64,000 nucleotides of DNA from Niabella aurantiaca DSM 17617. Its GTDB lineage: Bacteria > Bacteroidota > Bacteroidia > Chitinophagales > Chitinophagaceae. Of this stretch, positions 22,741 through 40,747 are shown piece after piece. The translations under genes were made by a program, and so were the position numbers. Every line of letters starts with the position of its first letter. The stretch's first letter is position 1. The stretch is from NCBI RefSeq assembly GCF_000374125.1, contig NZ_KB893629.1, positions 1 to 64,000 of the forward strand. Direction: 5' to 3'. The notes below the pieces were generated by a model that was not told where the DNA came from, did not search any database, and saw only the letters and a program-made list of their open reading frames with translations.

Positions 22741-22813
22741 GCCGAAGTAGCTCAGTTGGTAGAGCAGCTGATTTGTAATCAGCAGGTCGCGGGTTCGACT
22801 CCCTTCTTCGGCT
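22741..22813 (+). tRNA. tRNA-Thr (anticodon TGT)
   Basis: The cloverleaf is complete: acceptor gccgaag pairs with cttcggc, the anticodon stem is gctga/tcagc with loop tttgtaa, giving anticodon TGT for Thr. The T-loop ttcgact is normal. CCA is not encoded. Confidence 0.95.
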
Positions 22814-22870
22814 CAGTAAAGTTGATAAGTTTGTATGCTGACAGGCATGCGGACGTACAACTTAACAAAC

Positions 22871-22953
<83 letters not shown>

Positions 22954-23087
22954 CAGTTCAATTGAAAATGTGTCCATTTGAAGATTTGAAAATGATACTT
23001 TTCAACCATTAAGAGTTCTTTGAATTTGAATATTTGCGGATGGCTAAGTTTCAAATTAGTTCATGTTCAAATTTTCAAATTAGTTAA
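22954..23087. repeat. Phrase-like repeat between tRNA-Tyr and tRNA-Gly
   Basis: The spacer is a string of variations on aaatttgaa and ttcaaatt: ccatttgaagatttgaaaat, ctttgaatttgaatatttg, agtttcaaattagttcatg, and ttcaaattttcaaattagtt. It is long for a tRNA spacer and lies inside one transcription unit. Confidence 0.55.
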
Positions 23088-23160
23088 GCGGGAGTAGCTC
23101 ATTTGGTAGAGCGATAGCCTTCCAAGCTATAGGTGGCGAGTTCGAGCCTCGTCTCCCGCT
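23088..23160 (+). tRNA. tRNA-Gly (anticodon TCC)
   Basis: Acceptor gcgggag pairs with ctcccgc; the anticodon stem atagc/gctat encloses cttccaa, anticodon TCC. Confidence 0.95.
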
Positions 23161-23239
23161 CCGTTTCGTTTGTAGTTGAGCCTGCCCCGTTGCAGGCGGG
23201 GATTGTGTATCACAATTTCCGGAGCTATCAACTGAGATC

Positions 23240-23311
<72 letters not shown>

Positions 23312-23479
23312 CTTCATAGAAGCAGCCATTCCGGTTCCGGCCGGGATATATGGCTCTTCTTTTGGTATTTTAGATGGGTTGCACCTCTGTAGCAGCGATT
23401 CAACTCAGTATTACAATTCGGCCCCGGCTGGATTTGTGAATAAACAAAAATTTAGTAAAAACAATTAAAAAAGATAACA

Positions 23480-24667
23480 ATGTCAAAAGAGACCTTTAAG
23501 AGGGAGAAACCCCACGTAAACATTGGTACCATTGGCCACGTTGACCATGGTAAGACCACTTTGACTGCCGCTATTACCGATATTCTTTCTAAAAAAGGTT
23601 TAGCACAGGCAAGAAAATATGACGAAATTGATGGTGCACCTGAGGAAAAAGAGAGAGGGATTACAATCAATACCGCTCACGTTGAATATGAAACCGCTAC
23701 TCGTCACTATGCACACGTAGATTGCCCCGGTCACGCTGACTATGTTAAAAATATGATCACTGGTGCTGCCCAGATGGATGGAGCCATCCTGGTTGTGGCG
23801 GCTACCGATGGTCCGATGCCTCAAACAAAAGAGCACATCCTTTTGGCTGCACAGGTAGGTGTACCTAAAATGGTTGTTTTCTTAAATAAAGTGGACCTGG
23901 TTGACGATCCTGAACTGTTGGACCTGGTGGAAATGGAAGTGCGTGATGAATTAACAAAGCGTGGTTTCGACGGCGACAACACCCCCATCATCAAAGGTTC
24001 TGCTACCGGTGCTTTGGCTGGTGACGAAAAATGGGTAAACGCAGTTGTAGAATTGATGGATGCTGTTGACAGCTACATTCCCCTGCCTCCCCGTCCGATT
24101 GATCTGCCGTTCCTGATGAGTGTTGAGGATGTATTCTCTATCACTGGTCGTGGTACTGTTGCAACTGGTCGTATCGAAAGAGGTAAGATCAAAACTGGTG
24201 AGCCGGTTGAGATCGTAGGTCTGATGGAAAAGCCCCTGACTTCTACTGTAACAGGTGTGGAAATGTTCCGTAAGATCCTGGACGAAGGTGAAGCCGGTGA
24301 CAACGCAGGTCTGCTGTTACGTGGTATTGAGAAAACCCAGATCCGTCGTGGTATGGTAATCTGCAAACCCGGATCCATCACTCCGCACACTGAATTCAAA
24401 GCTGAAGTTTATGTACTGAGCAAAGATGAAGGTGGTCGTCACACGCCTTTCTTTAACAAATACCGTCCTCAGTTCTATTTCCGTACTACAGATGTAACCG
24501 GTGAGTGTACATTAGCTGAAGGTACTGAAATGATCATGCCTGGCGATAACACTTCTTTAACTGTAAAACTGATCACTCCGATCGCGATGGAAAAAGGTTT
24601 GAAGTTCGCGATCCGTGAAGGTGGCCGTACAGTAGGTGCAGGTCAGGTAACAGAGATCATCAAATAG
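23480..24667 (+). CDS. tuf: Elongation factor Tu
   Basis: The 395-residue GTPase brings aminoacyl-tRNA to the ribosome. The P-loop GHVDHGKT is at residues 19-26, the switch II motif DCPGHADY near 81-88, and the NKVD motif near 136. The beta-barrel domains 2 and 3 follow with the expected length. It lies in the tRNA-tuf-tRNA-Trp-secE-nusG cluster. Codon use is strongly biased, as expected for a highly expressed gene. Confidence 0.98.
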
Positions 24668-24722
24668 AAGCCGACCTAAACCCTCCCGGAGGGAGGCTTT
24701 GGAAAAGCTTTTTATACTTTTG

Positions 24723-24761
24723 CAAAGTACCTTAGGCGGTAAGCTTGGGTACTTTGTTTTT
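24723..24761 (+). terminator. Hairpin terminator after tuf
   Basis: Arms at 24723-24731 (caaagtacc) and 24748-24756 (ggtactttg) pair perfectly and are followed by TTTTT. It may end or attenuate transcription before tRNA-Trp and secE. Confidence 0.65.
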
Positions 24762-24781
24762 GAAAAAGTTCTTTAAATTAT

Positions 24782-24827
24782 AGCGGCTTCGTTTAGTCCC
24801 TTCCTTGAAGGGATTGGGGAGGCCGCT
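24782..24827. repeat. Compound palindrome between tuf terminator and tRNA-Trp
   Basis: Outer arms agcggc (24782-24787) and gccgct (24822-24827) enclose an inner pair tccctt/aaggga (24797-24802 with 24808-24813). The inner text resembles ccttccttgcggagggatg near 44440, so it may be a copy of a dispersed short palindromic repeat. Confidence 0.4.
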
Positions 24828-24831
24828 TCTT

Positions 24832-24902
24832 ACGGGCATAGTTCAATGGTAGAATAGAGGTCTCCAAAACCTTTGATCAGGGTTCGAATCCTTGTGCCCG
24901 TG
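24832..24902 (+). tRNA. tRNA-Trp (anticodon CCA)
   Basis: Acceptor acgggca pairs with tgcccgt; the anticodon stem gaggt/acctt (with one wobble pair) encloses ctccaaa, anticodon CCA. It sits just before secE, as in most Bacteroidota. Confidence 0.93.
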
Positions 24903-36048: not shown

Positions 36049-36513
36049 ATGGCAGTTATGAAGAAAAGTGTAAAGAAATATCCTATCATAGAAGATTGGC
36101 CGCTTTCTGTTGTTTCCGATATTGAAGCCGTTTACCAGGTACGTCATAAGCCCACAAAAAAGGAGCCCGCTGTAAAAGACTTTACATATCAGCATTTTAA
36201 AAAAATCGCGGACAGGGCACCATTTAGCCTGAATGAATGGGCTGATCTTCTTTATATCAGCGAGCGCTCATTGCACCGGTACGCAAAAGAAGGCAGCGGT
36301 TTTAACGGGCTGCAAATAGAACGGATCTTACTGCTGGCAACGCTTATTGATACCGGAAATGAATTTTTTGGGAAAGAAGGTTTCGGTCAATGGCTGCATA
36401 GCCGTCCCTTTTCACTGAACGGGTCCCAGGTAAAAGATCTGCTTACCACCCATAACGAAATACAGGAGGTTATCGATCTGCTTCATCGCATGGAACACGG
36501 AATTTCTGCCTGA
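36049..36513 (+). CDS. Xre/MbcA/ParS-type antitoxin with DUF2384 domain
   Basis: The protein of 154 residues (151 from the ATG at 36058) has an Xre-like helix-turn-helix (FSLNEWADLLYISERSLHRY, about 62-81) and a C-terminal DUF2384 segment (GFGQWLHSRPFSLNGSQVKD, then HNEIQEVIDLLHRMEHG). Antitoxins of this class bind the RES toxin and repress their own promoter. The stop and the toxin start share one base (TGATG), so translation is coupled. Confidence 0.9.
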   Translation: MAVMKKSVKKYPIIEDWPLSVVSDIEAVYQVRHKPTKKEPAVKDFTYQHFKKIADRAPFSLNEWADLLYISERSLHRYAKEGSGFNGLQIERILLLATLIDTGNEFFGKEGFGQWLHSRPFSLNGSQVKDLLTTHNEIQEVIDLLHRMEHGISA

Positions 36514-36968
36514 TGCTTGTTTATCGCCTGGTGCATGCACCCTACAGGGAAGATATATCCGGTTACGGGGCCTTTTTATACGGAGGGCGCTGGAACTCTA
36601 AGGGAGTGTATGCGCTTTATACATCGGAACATATTTCGCTTGCGGCGTTGGAGATCGTTGTTAATTATGACCGGAGTGCCTCTAAAATGCAACCGGAGTA
36701 TTACCTGCTGACGATGGAAATACCGGAAAGCAGCCTGGTGCAGATCCACCTGAATGTATTGAAAGATAAATGGATCGAGGATTTTGAATATACCCGTTTT
36801 ATGGGTGACCAGTTCCTGCTTCAACAGGCGTATTTTGGCTTACGGATGCCTTCTGCCGTGATCCCTGAAGAATCTAACCTGCTGCTAAATCCGCGGCATC
36901 CGGATTTCGAAAAGGTAAAAATCACAGATTCCCGGCCGTATGGGCTGGATAACCGGCTGTTTGGGTAG
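36513..36968 (+). CDS. RES-domain toxin (NAD-degrading)
   Basis: The 151-residue RES domain protein shows GGRWNSKGVYALYTSEHISL and, later, SAVIPEESNLLLNPRHPDF. Arg26, Tyr36 and Glu47 have the spacing of the Arg-Tyr-Glu active-site set described for RES toxins, and Ser121 fits the further conserved Ser (from memory). Such toxins break down NAD+ and stop growth until the antitoxin binds. Length is normal and the key residues are intact, so the toxin should be active. It is the second gene of a Xre-RES pair lodged next to the arginine operon. Confidence 0.9.
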   Translation: MLVYRLVHAPYREDISGYGAFLYGGRWNSKGVYALYTSEHISLAALEIVVNYDRSASKMQPEYYLLTMEIPESSLVQIHLNVLKDKWIEDFEYTRFMGDQFLLQQAYFGLRMPSAVIPEESNLLLNPRHPDFEKVKITDSRPYGLDNRLFG

Positions 36969-37178: not shown

Positions 37179-38162
37179 TTAAAACGCAGCCGGTTTAAGG
37201 TTTAAACCGGCTCGCTCATCCAGGTCAAAGATCAGGTTCATATTCTGCACCGCCTGTCCGCTGGCTCCCTTTAACAGGTTGTCCGCAGCTGAATGCACTA
37301 CAAGCTTTGTTCCTACTTTTTCCAGCTGAATAACGGCTTTATTGGTATTTACGATCTGCTTCAGGAAGATGGGTACACGGCTCACTATGGTAAACGGATG
37401 TTCCCTGTAAAAGTCTTCGAATAAGATATAGAGCTCTTCTAATGACAGATCGGTGGTGATCGTGGAACTGATGAAGATCCCTCTTGCGAAATCGCCCCGC
37501 CAGGGTACAAAGCTTAAGTCAATTTCTGTTCCCGGCTGCAACAGATCCAATGATTCGCCAATTTCTCCCAGGTGCTGGTGTGTAAGCGTTTTATAGGCCT
37601 GTATATTGTTGGCCCTCCAGCTGAAATGTGAAGTAGCTGCGAGTTTCTGGCCGGCTCCTGTAGAACCGGTGATGCCCGTTGTATAGATCTCTTTAAGGAC
37701 CCCGGTATGGGCCAGGGGCAGCAGTCCAAGCTGGATGGTAGTGGCAAAACATCCGGGATTGGCAATGTTTTGTGCTTTCCGGATCGCCTCACGGTTCAAC
37801 TCGGGAAGTCCGTACACAAATGTGCGGTTCAGCTCCGGCTGATTGCTGTCCTTTCTTAAACGGAAGTCGTTGGCCAGGTCGATGATCCTGATGGAGGGCG
37901 CGATGGGGGTCTCTTTTAAAAATTTAGTGGATTCCCCATGTCCCAAACAGAGAAAAAGCACATCAATATCCTGCAGGATCTCGCTGGTGAATTTAAGATC
38001 CGTATCGCCTACCAGGTCTGCGTGCACATCTGTAACGGATTTTCCGGCATTACTTCGGCTGTGAATAAATGAAACAGTTACAAAGGGGTGATGGATCAAT
38101 AAACGGATTAATTCACCACCAGTATATCCTGCGCCTCCTATTATTCCAGCTTTTATTTTCAT
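37179..38162 (-). CDS. argC: N-acetyl-gamma-glutamyl-phosphate reductase
   Basis: The 327-residue enzyme reduces N-acetylglutamyl phosphate to the semialdehyde in arginine synthesis. The N-terminal NADP-binding loop is IIGGAGYTGGELIRLL. The catalytic Cys lies in IANPGCFATTIQLGLLPL near residue 138. The C-terminal VHSAADNLLKGASGQAVQNM is the usual end. It is the last gene of the GNAT-argG-cupin-argC unit; argB, argD, argF and argH are not in the window. Confidence 0.96.
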   Translation of the reverse strand: MKIKAGIIGGAGYTGGELIRLLIHHPFVTVSFIHSRSNAGKSVTDVHADLVGDTDLKFTSEILQDIDVLFLCLGHGESTKFLKETPIAPSIRIIDLANDFRLRKDSNQPELNRTFVYGLPELNREAIRKAQNIANPGCFATTIQLGLLPLAHTGVLKEIYTTGITGSTGAGQKLAATSHFSWRANNIQAYKTLTHQHLGEIGESLDLLQPGTEIDLSFVPWRGDFARGIFISSTITTDLSLEELYILFEDFYREHPFTIVSRVPIFLKQIVNTNKAVIQLEKVGTKLVVHSAADNLLKGASGQAVQNMNLIFDLDERAGLNLKPAAF

Positions 38163-38196: not shown

Positions 38197-38556
38197 TCAC
38201 AAATTTAAGCGATCCTGTTCGGTTAACGGATGAGAAAACACAAGAAATTCCAGCGGTTCTGCTCCTTCGTTGAAGATCCGGTGTGGCTGACCGGGAAAAA
38301 TTTCGATCCCCTGCCCGGCATCGACTGTAAAGAAACGCTGATCCATTTCAAATGTGGCCGCCCCGTTTGTGATATAAAAGAACTGGGTGGCCTTGTTATG
38401 TAAATGCAATTGCTCGCCTGATCCTGGCGGTATCTGTTCCTTTTTGATCGAAAAGAATGGATTGCTACTTAAAACAAATGCCTCGCTGCCTGCTCCCCAT
38501 TGATATGACGACAAGGGAGCCGCACTGCTGACTACTTTATTTTCCTTCGTGGGCAT
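38197..38556 (-). CDS. Small cupin-fold protein inside the arginine operon
   Basis: The 119-residue protein is a single cupin barrel: motif 1 reads QIPPGSGEQLHLHNKATQFF and motif 2 reads GIEIFPGQPHRIFNEG. Metal-binding His residues are present (HLH in motif 1, His in motif 2). Its first 20 bases overlap the end of argG, so it is translationally coupled. A cupin at this place is unusual; it could act as a sugar or amino-acid isomerase, or as a sensor. The substrate is unknown. Confidence 0.8.
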   Translation of the reverse strand: MPTKENKVVSSAAPLSSYQWGAGSEAFVLSSNPFFSIKKEQIPPGSGEQLHLHNKATQFFYITNGAATFEMDQRFFTVDAGQGIEIFPGQPHRIFNEGAEPLEFLVFSHPLTEQDRLNL

Positions 38557-39742
38557 TTTCTTTTATCTGATGATAGATGGATGTCTGGTTTCCAAAGATC
38601 CGTGTAAAGCCTTTTACATCATCACCTGTAAAGCTCCTGTTCGATTCACCATAGCTGCCAAACGCATTATTCATCAGATCATACGGGCTTTCAATGCCCA
38701 GTACCTGGTAACGGTAGGGGTGCAGTTGCAGGAAGACATCCCCGGTCACATTGCGCTGGCTGCTTTGCAGGTAAGCTTCCATATCGCGCATTACCGGGTC
38801 GAGGATCTGCCCTTCGTGCAGCCAGGTACCATAGAATTGCGCTATCTGATCTTTCCACTGCAGCTGCCATTTGCTTAATACATGTTTTTCCAGCGCATGG
38901 TGTGCTTTGATGATCAGGATGGGCGCTGCCGCCTCAAAGCCTACGCGCCCTTTGATGCCGATAATGGTATCGCCTACATGGATATCACGGCCAATGCCAT
39001 AAGGGCCAGCTATTTGCTGCAGGTGGCGGATGGCCTCTGTCGGATGATCGAACGGCTGATCGTTCACCGTTTTTAGTTCCCCCTGCTCAAAAGAAAGTTT
39101 TACAGGCTCTGTTCCTGTCTGGGTCACTTGTGTAGGCCATGCATCGTCCGGTAAGTACCCGTTGGATGTAAGGGTCTCTTTACCTCCGACGCTGGTGCCC
39201 CAAAGTCCTTTATTGATGGAGTAAACCGATTTTTCGAAGTTCATTTCCACGCCTTTGCTTTTTAAATACTCCACTTCCGATGCGCGGCTGAGGTTCATAT
39301 CCCGGATCGGGGTAATGATCTCCAGCTCCGGGGCCATGATGTGGAATACCATGTCGAACCGCACCTGGTCGTTGCCGGCGCCGGTGCTGCCGTGGGCAAT
39401 GGCATCCGCATGGATCTCTTTTGCATAGTTGGCAATGTGCAGGGCCTGGCTTAAACGTTCTGCAGATACGCTCAGCGGGTATGTATTGTTCTTCAGTACA
39501 TTCCCATATATCAGGTAGCGTATAATGGAATCGTAATAGTTTTTAACGGCGTCTACTGTCTTGTGCGATTTTACACCCAGCTTCTTGGCATGTTCCTCTA
39601 TCTTTTTTAATTCGTCCTCACTAAAGCCCCCGGTATTTACAATAATGCTGTGGACCTCATATCCTTTTTCTTCTGTAAAGTATTTTACGCAAAATGAAGT
39701 ATCTAAACCACCACTAAAACCCAGTACAACTTTTTTAGCCAT
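38537..39742 (-). CDS. argG: Argininosuccinate synthase
   Basis: The 401-residue ATP-dependent enzyme joins citrulline and aspartate. The PP-motif FSGGLDTSFCVKYF near residues 9-22 binds ATP, and AHGSTGAGNDQVRFDMVF near 114-131 binds citrulline. Length fits the family. It follows the GNAT acetyltransferase by 12 bases and overlaps the cupin gene by 20 bases, consistent with one mRNA. Confidence 0.96.
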   Translation of the reverse strand: MAKKVVLGFSGGLDTSFCVKYFTEEKGYEVHSIIVNTGGFSEDELKKIEEHAKKLGVKSHKTVDAVKNYYDSIIRYLIYGNVLKNNTYPLSVSAERLSQALHIANYAKEIHADAIAHGSTGAGNDQVRFDMVFHIMAPELEIITPIRDMNLSRASEVEYLKSKGVEMNFEKSVYSINKGLWGTSVGGKETLTSNGYLPDDAWPTQVTQTGTEPVKLSFEQGELKTVNDQPFDHPTEAIRHLQQIAGPYGIGRDIHVGDTIIGIKGRVGFEAAAPILIIKAHHALEKHVLSKWQLQWKDQIAQFYGTWLHEGQILDPVMRDMEAYLQSSQRNVTGDVFLQLHPYRYQVLGIESPYDLMNNAFGSYGESNRSFTGDDVKGFTRIFGNQTSIYHQIKENAHEGK

Positions 39743-39754
39743 CTTTATCTGTTA

Positions 39755-40531
39755 TTATGAATGAAATAAATTAAAAAATGATTTTAAGGTTCCGGAACCG
39801 GTGCCGGTCTTGTCTTTTTTCCGGAATGCCTTTAAGAATTTCCATTGTTTGAAACGCTGAAGCCGCTCCAGCCCCGTTTTATTCTCTTCAAAAAAGGCCT
39901 TGGTCTCTTCCGGCTCGTAGTGGTCTTTGGGGTCATAGAGCATTGCCGTGCACATGCAGTTCTTCCGGTCCTTACCCATAAGGATCTCGTAGTTGACACA
40001 GCTTTTACAGCCTGCCCAGAACTGTTCGTCCTGGGTCAGCTCCGAATAGGTTACCGGTTCATAACCCAGCTCGCTGTTGATCTTCATTACAGCCAGGCCG
40101 GTGGTTAACCCAAAGATCTTGGCTTCGGGGAACATTTTGCGGCTGAGTTTGAAAATGGTCTGTTTGATCTGCTTGGCAACCCCGCTTTTGCGGAAATGAG
40201 GGGCAACAATGAGTCCTGAATTGGCTACATATTCGCCATGGCTCCAGGTTTCAATATAACAGAAACCTACCCATTCCCCGCCTTTTGTAACGGCTATCAC
40301 AGCCTTGCCTTCGTCGATCTTTTTTTCGATATACTCCGGACTTCTTTTGGCGATACCCGTACCCCGGGCTTTTGCAGAAGATTCCATTTCGTCCGTAATG
40401 ATCGTTGAATATTTTTTATCGGTAGTCTCGGCTACCCGTACGATAATTTCCTGATTGTGATTGTCCACGATGTGTAGTTGATGAGATTTGCGGAAGACCA
40501 GTCCTGATAAGTTTTTCCGGGGATATTTCAC
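39755..40531 (-). CDS. GNAT acetyltransferase, probable N-acetylglutamate synthase-like
   Basis: The protein has up to 258 residues. The GNAT core is AVIAVTKGGEWVGFCYIETW followed by an acetyl-CoA loop (PHFRKSGVAKQIKQ). A C-terminal part carries two Cys pairs (GCKSC and NCMC), a possible metal site. In Bacteroidota this family heads arginine operons and is thought to make N-acetylglutamate, but that is inferred from neighbours. Both likely starts are GTG: 40531, which lies at the base of a hairpin, and 40468, which gives the more usual N-terminus close to EIIVRVAETTD. The leader upstream has a 41-codon frame in the same reading frame. Confidence 0.82.
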   Translation of the reverse strand: MKYPRKNLSGLVFRKSHQLHIVDNHNQEIIVRVAETTDKKYSTIITDEMESSAKARGTGIAKRSPEYIEKKIDEGKAVIAVTKGGEWVGFCYIETWSHGEYVANSGLIVAPHFRKSGVAKQIKQTIFKLSRKMFPEAKIFGLTTGLAVMKINSELGYEPVTYSELTQDEQFWAGCKSCVNYEILMGKDRKNCMCTAMLYDPKDHYEPEETKAFFEENKTGLERLQRFKQWKFLKAFRKKDKTGTGSGTLKSFFNLFHS

Positions 40532-40575
40532 TGACAGGGCCCAGGTCAGGGGTTCGTCCTGTCAGCAATCAGGAC
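40531..40575 (-). promoter_or_regulatory. Two mutually exclusive hairpins in the arginine operon leader
   Basis: On the minus strand, hairpin A pairs 40575-40570 (gtcctg) with 40561-40556 (caggac). Hairpin B pairs 40565-40558 (ctgacagg) with 40538-40531 (cctgtcag) perfectly. They share bases 40558-40561, so only one can form. B ends exactly at the GTG at 40531, and the stop codon of the upstream 41-codon frame is inside the loop of A and the arm of B. This is the layout of an attenuator or a translation-control switch. Confidence 0.5.
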
Positions 40576-40687
40576 AGCGCATCGGTCGTGGAAAACATAC
40601 AGCCACGTCAAAACCAACGGCATAGATCCCCGTGGTTATATTTGCATGAAATGCAACGTGTTTTGTATGTTTTAAAAAGTTATTCAT
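40562..40687 (-). CDS. Candidate leader peptide of the arginine operon, 41 residues
   Basis: The frame starts with an ATG at 40687 and ends at UGA at 40562-40564. It reads MNNFLKHTKHVAFHANITTG, IYAVGFDVAVCFPRPMRCPD and a final Cys. The ATG is 27 bases after an exact -7 promoter word, the same arrangement as at other genes in this window, so it should be the first frame on the mRNA. Two Arg codons and two Pro codons precede the stop. It is in frame with the acetyltransferase, with only the UGA between. It may be a regulatory leader peptide, a readthrough N-terminus, or chance. Confidence 0.45.
   Translation of the reverse strand: MNNFLKHTKHVAFHANITTGIYAVGFDVAVCFPRPMRCPDC
40637..40644 (+). promoter_or_regulatory. 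-7 element (TATATTTG) for the 40773 gene
   Basis: An exact match on the plus strand, followed by an inverted repeat ttgcat-gaa-atgcaa (40642-40656). It would give a leader of about 125 bases for the membrane protein at 40773. Confidence 0.4.
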
Positions 40688-40714
40688 TTAAAAACAAATT
40701 GTACTTTCGATTCA

Positions 40715-40747
40715 CAAAAATAATGCAATATTGAATATTGCGCATTA
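40715..40747 (-). promoter_or_regulatory. Promoter and palindromic operator of the arginine operon
   Basis: TATTTTTG on the minus strand (40715-40722) is an exact -7 match. Directly upstream, 40725-40741 is a perfect palindrome (gcaatatt-g-aatattgc), and taatgc (40721-40726) with gcatta (40742-40747) extends it with a 2-base slip. A repressor bound there would block the polymerase. It resembles the length and AT-rich form of ARG boxes but is not an exact match to the known consensus. Confidence 0.5.

What the first reader, a model, noticed from the sequence alone, without database searches (positions are those of the whole stretch)
40531..40747. Possible new attenuator in the leader of the arginine operon
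Seen: on the minus strand an exact -7 promoter word (40715-40722) is followed after 27 bases by an ATG and a 41-codon frame. Its UGA (40562-40564) lies inside two competing hairpins (A: 40575-40570 with 40561-40556; B: 40565-40558 with 40538-40531). B ends on the first base of a GTG start for the acetyltransferase that opens the operon. Inference: a ribosome at the end of the small frame would cover the arm of B and free the start; without it B would close the start. The last codons hold two Arg, so arginine supply could be the signal. I know of no described leader of this kind in Bacteroidota.
Basis: partly seen in the sequence, partly recalled or inferred. Interest (0 to 1): 0.8.

Follow-up and report, generated by a model that had tools for sequence, protein, structure and literature searches.

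The report
Arginine-sensing leader before arginine genes
Just ahead of the arginine-making genes this bacterium carries a tiny gene ending in arginine codons and a folding RNA switch, a pattern found in many related bacteria that seem to lack the usual arginine repressor, so it is probably how they sense arginine shortage.

Summary
The small frame's UGA sits in the same hairpin in 89 of 109 readable relatives' leaders; the other 20 have other small frames with Arg tails. At least 3 Arg in the last nine codons: 79 of 102 distinct leaders, 1.2% of shuffles; rare CGA is 41% of these Arg codons, 7% in the GNAT genes. ArgR was found in 0 of 39 genomes, its own included. In the wider class 30 of 45 loci show such a tail; in six genomes with a strong ArgR hit and this GNAT, argR lies about 0.3 kb away.
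GTG 40531 is not the conserved start; GTG 40468 is. The hairpin's loop pairs, with covariation, with a second small hairpin about 24 nt before a weak start codon. No intrinsic terminator was found (0 of 109).
Best reading: a terminator-free, probably translational arginine attenuator doing ArgR's work. Conservation is shown; the arginine response, its direction and its level are inferred.

The parts
40715..40722 (-). -7 promoter word TATTTTTG (TAnnTTTG type; the consensus is recalled)
   Evidence: Sequence; TAnnTTTG lies in the stretch upstream of the small frame in 79 of 102 leaders, 7.4% of shuffles
40562..40687 (-). leader peptide frame, 41 codons plus UGA
   Evidence: pN/pS 0.24 over 54 leaders; next best match in the own genome E 0.37
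40577..40588 (-). stretch with the two Arg codons of the tail, CGA (40588-40586, codon -8) and CGC (40579-40577, codon -5)
40570..40575 (-). GTCCTG: 5' arm of hairpin A; GTCCTGAT 40575-40568 can instead pair with ATCAGGAC 40508-40501
   Evidence: codon choice for CCTG; no covariation of A
   Evidence: R1 model 93.5 bits, E 7e-22
40544..40548 (-). P1 loop TGACC, 5' partner of the loop-loop pairing (4 pairs in the window)
40492..40504 (-). hairpin P2 GGACTGGTCTTCC; loop GGTC 40499-40496 pairs with GACC 40547-40544
39755..40468 (-). GNAT N-acetyltransferase gene, conserved start GTG 40468-40466
   Evidence: nearest in-frame start is not ATG in 88 of 109 leaders
38537..39742 (-). argG, argininosuccinate synthase
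   Evidence: downstream of GNAT on the same strand in 108 of 110 loci (2 lack it in the stretch held) and in 27 of 27 wider loci
38197..38556 (-). cupin-domain gene inside the operon
37179..38162 (-). argC, N-acetyl-gamma-glutamyl-phosphate reductase
   Evidence: TIGR01850

Best explanation
This is a cis-acting arginine attenuator of the GNAT-argG-argC operon that works through translation of a leader peptide, in lineages where no ArgR was found. Ribosomes read a short frame whose last codons include Arg (often CGA) and whose UGA is part of hairpin P1. When arginine is plentiful they finish and leave; P1 forms, its loop docks onto the loop of P2 about 24 nt before the weak GTG/TTG start of the acetyltransferase gene, and this compact fold lowers initiation there. 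When Arg-tRNA runs short the ribosome halts on the Arg codons at the foot of P1, keeps P1 from forming, and the operon is expressed. Shown here by comparison: the conserved frame, Arg enrichment, P1, P2 and their loop-loop pairing, fixed spacing to the start, weak start codons, no intrinsic terminator found, no ArgR found. Inferred: arginine as the signal, the readout on translation, and the direction (docked P1-P2 = off). My odds: arginine-responsive leader-peptide attenuation 0.85; readout on translation 0.55; this direction 0.5.
For: Arg tail: 79 of 102 distinct leaders with at least 3 Arg in the last nine codons of the best frame, shuffles treated alike 1.2%; 30 of 45 wider loci, shuffles 1.9%. 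CGA 130 of 315 tail Arg codons, 73 of 1015 in GNAT genes, 4 of 153 in ten window genes. Peptide constraint pN/pS 0.24. Structure: 94.3% of cells paired, shuffles 90.4% (0 of 500), slid versions at most 44.2%; the loop-loop helix alone 91.2%, shuffles 83.1%, slid at most 53.5%, one pair showing all four Watson-Crick types (CG 30, GC 17, UA 10, AU 4). P2 to start: median 24 nt, sd 3, n 69; nearest GNAT start GTG 59, TTG 29, ATG 21 of 109, while argG of the same set starts with ATG in 89 of 93 assigned (assigned by a slightly different rule). Terminators 0 of 109. ArgR 0 of 39 genomes.
Against: No expression data. Secondary-structure prediction shows no change of access at the acetyltransferase start between ribosome states (means 0.565 to 0.572). 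In the window and 16 other leaders the last Arg codon is at -5, where a halted ribosome (reach of 13 nt from the A-site codon, as in the toeprints of PMC13009471) would stop about 2 nt short of P1; there it would rather cover arm A and leave P1 free, which suits the opposite direction. In many leaders a starved ribosome would meet earlier Arg codons first (-8 in 45, -6 in 58 of 80), also out of reach of P1. The pair at columns 19/84 is not a standard pair in 23 of 89 leaders, and the number of further pair types is no higher than in shuffles (84 of 500 as high; 246 of 500 for the loop-loop helix alone). Rows of A1 and A2 were picked by patterns that demand the P2 word (GG..GG[TC]..) and, for A2, both P1 arms, so those columns are paired by selection; the P1 loop and columns 19/84 were not selected on. 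The tree-based test was powerless: 2 independent pairs, and control column 111 did as well as the true partner. 11 group-A leaders lack the common P2. The window's tail has only two Arg.
Confidence: 0.6

Rival explanations
1. Opposite direction, in trp style: a ribosome halted on Arg masks arm A (CCUG), so P1 and the docked fold form and this is the ON state; a ribosome that reaches the UGA opens P1 and the operon is off. This resembles Salmonella orf34-speF, where a hairpin downstream of the stop forms at low arginine.
For: Pro codon at -3 is CCT in 44 of 44 and followed by G in 39 of 44, so CCUG seems kept at the RNA level in those leaders; in the window the -5 Arg codon fits this geometry; PMC6386406 passages.
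Against: CCUG is present in only 39 of 80 group-A leaders. The off structure (P1 3' arm with downstream RNA) is predicted above 0.5 in only 19 of 80. After release P1 would form anyway unless the ribosome lingers at the stop.
Confidence: 0.3
2. Transcriptional attenuation through Rho: after the leader is translated, or when it is not, C-rich RNA between P1 and P2 is exposed and Rho ends transcription before the acetyltransferase gene.
For: No intrinsic terminator found; nearly invariant C residues between P1 and P2; Rho does this in orf34-speF (PMC6386406, abstract and passages).
Against: The tight 24 nt spacing to the start and the weak start codons are not needed for transcriptional control.
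Confidence: 0.2
3. P1-P2 is a ligand-binding RNA (riboswitch) for arginine or a related molecule, and the small frame is an additional sensor.
For: P1 is more invariant than a plain stem needs (7 of 8 pairs never vary in 89 distinct leaders, which were however picked by a P1 pattern), with a near-constant ACGA internal loop and a docked second hairpin.
Against: Arg codons at the foot of P1 already explain the signal; groups B, C and other families keep an Arg-tailed frame but not this RNA. No binding data; no Rfam match.
Confidence: 0.08
4. A conserved small protein gene that happens to precede the operon, with no regulatory role.
For: Strong constraint on the peptide body in 54 leaders.
Against: The body is not kept in other leaders, while the Arg tail, its place about 96 nt before the GNAT start and the RNA fold are.
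Confidence: 0.05

Closest known systems
orf34 (SpeFL) leader of Salmonella speF, PMC6386406 (abstract and passages read)
   Same: Small frame with Arg codons, a hairpin just downstream of the stop codon, response to arginine, no intrinsic terminator seen in the leader
   Different: Regulates a polyamine gene; its sensing Arg pair is at codons 12-13, not at the end; no Pfam match for the window peptide; gene 516 nt from the transcript start; no kissing hairpins in the passages I read
rbfL of Staphylococcus aureus, PMC13009471 (abstract and passages read)
   Same: Leader peptide with rare Arg codons that senses arginine and acts on translation of the next gene
   Different: 8 codons, overlaps the RBS of rbf and represses at low arginine by occlusion; here the frame ends about 96 nt away and a conserved RNA fold lies between
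Classical amino acid attenuators (trp, his, leu; recalled)
   Same: Cognate codons in a leader peptide before the operon for that amino acid; rare codons; alternative pairings
   Different: No intrinsic terminator found here; the stop codon is inside the hairpin; loop-loop pairing with a second hairpin at fixed distance from the start codon
Leader-peptide attenuation suspected in Flavobacterium psychrophilum, PMC9723704 (section 19 and passages read)
   Same: Same phylum, amino acid operons
   Different: Arginine not named in that section; no mechanism worked out there; supplements not read
ArgR repressor (PF01316)
   Same: Controls arginine operons; in six Bacteroidia genomes of the sample argR lies about 0.3 kb from the same GNAT gene
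   Different: Protein repressor, not found in this genome or in 38 relatives

Membership tests
Leader-peptide (ribosome-mediated) attenuator | Translated short frame with codons of the operon's own amino acid | tested here: met
   Arg enrichment and CGA bias, coding constraint, arginine operon downstream; translation itself not measured
Leader-peptide (ribosome-mediated) attenuator | RNA structures that a ribosome at those codons would switch | tested here: inconclusive
   P1, P2 and loop-loop pairing conserved and P1 holds the stop; hairpin A not covarying but its core kept by codon choice; direction unresolved
Classical transcription attenuator (trp/his type) | Intrinsic terminator between leader frame and first gene | tested here: not met
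   0 of 109 leaders at -6 kcal/mol, shuffles 5 of 545, positive control found; at -3 kcal/mol 5 weak ones
SpeFL / orf34 (DUF2618, PF10940, named in PMC6386406) | Peptide family match | tested here: not met
   No Pfam match up to E 10 for the window peptide and two of three relatives; the third had one unrelated weak hit
ArgR regulon | ArgR encoded in the genome | tested here: not met
   PF01316: 0 of 39 genomes including the own one, of which 33 are at least 90% complete; controls ring
Any Rfam 15 RNA family | Match to a covariance model | tested here: not met
   Window: only tRNAs at gathering threshold; L019, L085, L026, L107, L043 up to E 5: one chance miRNA hit away from the leader
Riboswitch | Direct ligand binding | not testable with these tools
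   Needs probing or calorimetry

The most novel reading that the evidence does not exclude
Across the class Bacteroidia the job of ArgR was taken over by an arginine leader peptide; in Chitinophagaceae it became a terminator-free switch in which the ribosome at the stop codon opens or closes a kissing pair of hairpins at a fixed distance from a weak start codon, and in one large set of leaders the conserved nascent peptide itself takes part in sensing arginine.
Probability: 0.25. Interest if true: 0.85.

Novelty: new variant of a known kind. Interest (0 to 1): 0.7.

Why it matters
How Bacteroidota without ArgR control arginine synthesis appears to be an open question: my nine searches of the held library (three of these lists were capped at 15 rows) showed no arginine leader in this phylum in the listings and passages I saw. 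The comparison gives a concrete, testable answer that applies to many genera (33 of 101 genera sampled in the family carry the R1 element), and a new RNA layout for attenuation without a terminator: stop codon inside a hairpin, kissing loop, fixed spacing to a weak start. It also suggests that a protein regulator and an RNA leader can stand in for each other in front of the same gene.

Tried and rejected
Rejected: GTG 40531 as the gene start. Hairpin B as a lid on the start. The large fold of the 5' half of the leader seen in the window: its arms are not kept in relatives by eye. Intrinsic terminator (at a laxer -3 kcal/mol five weak ones appear, L028, L032, L079, L112, L115). A stop-adjacent hairpin as a universal feature: held in group B (8 of 11 with z below -1) but not in group C (0 of 9), and weak elsewhere (11 of 30).

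Led nowhere: Pfam and PDB searches with the leader peptide; NCBIfam for the acetyltransferase gave one hit far under its cut-off; independent-pairs tests too small, with a control column doing as well; literature searches (listed under why it matters). A resemblance of the peptide body to SpeFL was recalled from memory and not borne out by Pfam.

Rows dropped and selection: L021 (N gap) is out of all leader counts. The 110 loci come from two searches and hold some genomes twice (for example L007 and L036), so distinct counts (80 group A, 102 leaders) are given where they matter. A1 holds 68 of 80 distinct group-A leaders, leaving out 11 without the common P2 motif (L022, L023, L030, L080, L087, L092, L100, L102, L112, L113, L115) and L052 (long linker). 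One search found 143 distinct cores among the loci given; 94 had the common P2 motif; A2 holds 90 of these 94, leaving out L052, L237, L242 and L251, with L039 re-cut by hand. Eight of 60 fetched stretches (L244, L249, L250, L254, L262, L263, L268, L269) gave no new core, being repeats or not matching the pattern. In one search one of the 69 P2 calls (linker 12, distance 42; L039) is a false early hit. The small-frame picker chose a wrong frame in L015, L018 and L059; group A was therefore set by the stop-hairpin word. In the wider set 22 of 67 loci gave no GNAT match by tblastn and were read by position, without a shuffle control.

Full report
What is in the window. The window lies in a Niabella genome: a same-genus contig (L007, G010:C5, 2,896,547 bases) has the length and place of the named Niabella pedocola contig (L036). 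On the minus strand the order is -7 word (40722-40715), a 41-codon frame (40687-40562), hairpin P1 (40565-40531) that begins one base before the UGA, hairpin P2 (40504-40492), GTG 40468, the GNAT acetyltransferase gene, argG, a cupin gene and argC. Every coordinate of the finding is correct. The folded leader is more stable than its shuffles (z -3.26).

Where the operon starts. The mechanical ORF of 258 aa begins at GTG 40531. In most relatives the alignable protein begins at a GTG, TTG or ATG followed by GAN AAT or similar, which in the window is GTG 40468. The GTG that overlaps the 3' arm of P1 is in frame in 15 of 80 distinct leaders and open in 3, so it is kept for the hairpin and not as a start.

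Conservation of the frame. Of 110 loci with the GNAT gene (30 from genomes of the same family code, 80 from named records, many labelled Chitinophagaceae; some genomes occur twice), one (L021) has an N gap; the other 109 fall into A (89; UGA inside CUGAYAGG), B (11; tails such as RRPRI) and C (9; tails ending VRR). Three or more Arg in the last nine codons of the best frame occur in 79 of 102 distinct leaders, against 1.2% of dinucleotide shuffles. CGA is 130 of 315 Arg codons in the tails, 73 of 1015 in the GNAT genes and 4 of 153 in ten genes of the window. The frame body shared by 54 leaders shows pN/pS 0.24; the other two frames give 1.68 and 1.59. The window's own lineage is a poorer case: only two Arg, at -8 and -5, and L018 has one.

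Conservation of the RNA. All 80 distinct group-A leaders, picked by the 5' arm word alone, carry the matching 3' arm. On 90 leaders (A2, 89 distinct) P1, its inner helix, P2 and the loop-loop helix pair in 94.3% of cells against 90.4% in shuffles (0 of 500 as high) and at most 44.2% in slid versions. A2 rows were picked by patterns that require both P1 arms and the P2 word, so the weight lies on columns that were not selected and on the shuffles, which keep column make-up. P1 itself hardly varies (7 of 8 pairs never); one pair shows CG 74, UA 10, UG 5, and the first inner pair AU 42, GC 26, CG 2, GU 3 with 16 not paired. The loop-loop helix alone pairs in 91.2% of cells against 83.1% in shuffles and at most 53.5% when slid; one of its pairs shows CG 30, GC 17, UA 10, AU 4, GU 2 and 23 not paired. 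Against this, the number of further pair types is no higher than in shuffles (84 and 246 of 500). In the window the pairing is GACC 40547-40544 with GGTC 40499-40496. On the tree of 68 GNAT proteins the 5' side of that pair changed at least 10 times, but the independent-pairs test had only two pairs on supported branches, and a control column did as well; it decides nothing.

Distribution. A covariance model (R1) finds one strong copy in the own genome (93.5 bits; the next hit has E 2), 36 of 298 genomes of the order, all 36 of the same family, and 126 of 394 genomes drawn from the family, two of them with two copies. In the larger searches Infernal's stricter filters lose weak matches. The Arg-tailed frame reaches further: 30 of 45 GNAT loci of the class sample have at least 3 Arg in the last nine codons, shuffles 1.9% (two of the 45, L130 and L131, are of the same family), with tails such as VRPVFYIRR, SRRRPYMPRA and VRRRRYFFRV. 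Of 22 further loci read by position, 6 have at least 3 Arg in the last ten codons; the three loci of code family f75 among them have 0 or 1.

ArgR. PF01316 was found in 0 of 39 genomes including the own one (33 of them at least 90% complete), with controls ringing, and passes the cut-off in 11 of 247 genomes of the class. Six of the ten with a strong hit (G352, G392, G425, G456, G486, G515) also have this GNAT, and in each the argR hit lies on the same contig and strand 290 to 344 bases upstream of the GNAT match (coordinates); the other four strong ones (G358, G397, G430, G541) are not among the GNAT matches. The eleventh, borderline hit (G481) lies on another contig than its GNAT, and three hits are under the cut-off. 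In the three of the six that I fetched (L192-L194) a frame of 159 to 200 codons ends 19 to 79 nt before the GNAT start and no Arg-tailed small frame is seen. A repressor gene and an Arg leader thus seem to alternate at the same place.

How it may work. No intrinsic terminator was found between stop and GNAT in 109 leaders at -6 kcal/mol, with a positive control found. P2 ends a median of 24 nt (sd 3, n 69 of 80, one a false call) before the GNAT start; UGA to start has median 96, quartiles 95 and 98 (n 80); the nearest in-frame start is GTG in 59, TTG in 29 and ATG in 21 of 109, whereas argG in the same set starts with ATG in 89 of 93 assigned. Fixed spacing and a weak start point to a readout on translation; they do not prove it. 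Secondary structure alone predicts no change of access at the start, so any block must come from the docked fold or from another step. The direction is open: in 61 of 80 group-A leaders the last Arg codon is at -2 to -4, where a halted ribosome would touch the foot of P1, but in the window it is at -5 and would not; there it would instead cover arm A, and in many leaders earlier Arg codons (-8, -6) would be met first.

Known relatives. The nearest described systems that I read are orf34-speF of Salmonella (PMC6386406, abstract and passages) and rbfL of S. aureus (PMC13009471, abstract and passages); both sense arginine through Arg codons of a leader peptide. PMC9723704 (section 19) reports clues for leader-peptide attenuation in a flavobacterium, with pheA and hisG among the structured 5' elements named. 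The passages that I saw of PMC8632094 and PMC6429828 describe no arginine leader of Bacteroidota. No text that I saw describes this element; the library lacks most subscription papers, and no supplements were read.

Verdict. Real, conserved, and probably an arginine attenuator of a terminator-free kind: a new variant of a known kind.

Noticed in passing
40725-40741: Palindrome GCAATATT-C-AATATTGC just upstream of the -7 word; intact in Niabella loci L007, L008 and L011, outermost base changed in L009, L010 and L014, an inner base changed in L012 and L013: possible operator of an unknown regulator.
   Followed up: partly
36049-36968: RES/Xre toxin-antitoxin pair (NF049845 under its cut-off, NF049844 over it) on the plus strand just beyond argC.
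   Followed up: no
L027, L105, L107, L109 (group C leaders): A different possible hairpin, CAUAG...CUAUG, about 12 nt after the stop codon of VRR-ended frames (by eye).
   Followed up: no
L137, L146, L152, L155, L161, L177 after the small-frame stop: Recurring CCTACGYGG word in leaders of other families (by eye).
   Followed up: no
L178, L181, L185: Similar leaders of one other family (code f33) with tails like RPSRRPHGGIC before the same GNAT gene.
   Followed up: no
L030, L257, L258, L267 (group A type without the common P2): P1 loop UUGGC can pair with GCCAA downstream, a changed version of the loop pairing (by eye).
   Followed up: partly
22741-24902: Five tRNA genes on the plus strand.
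   Followed up: no
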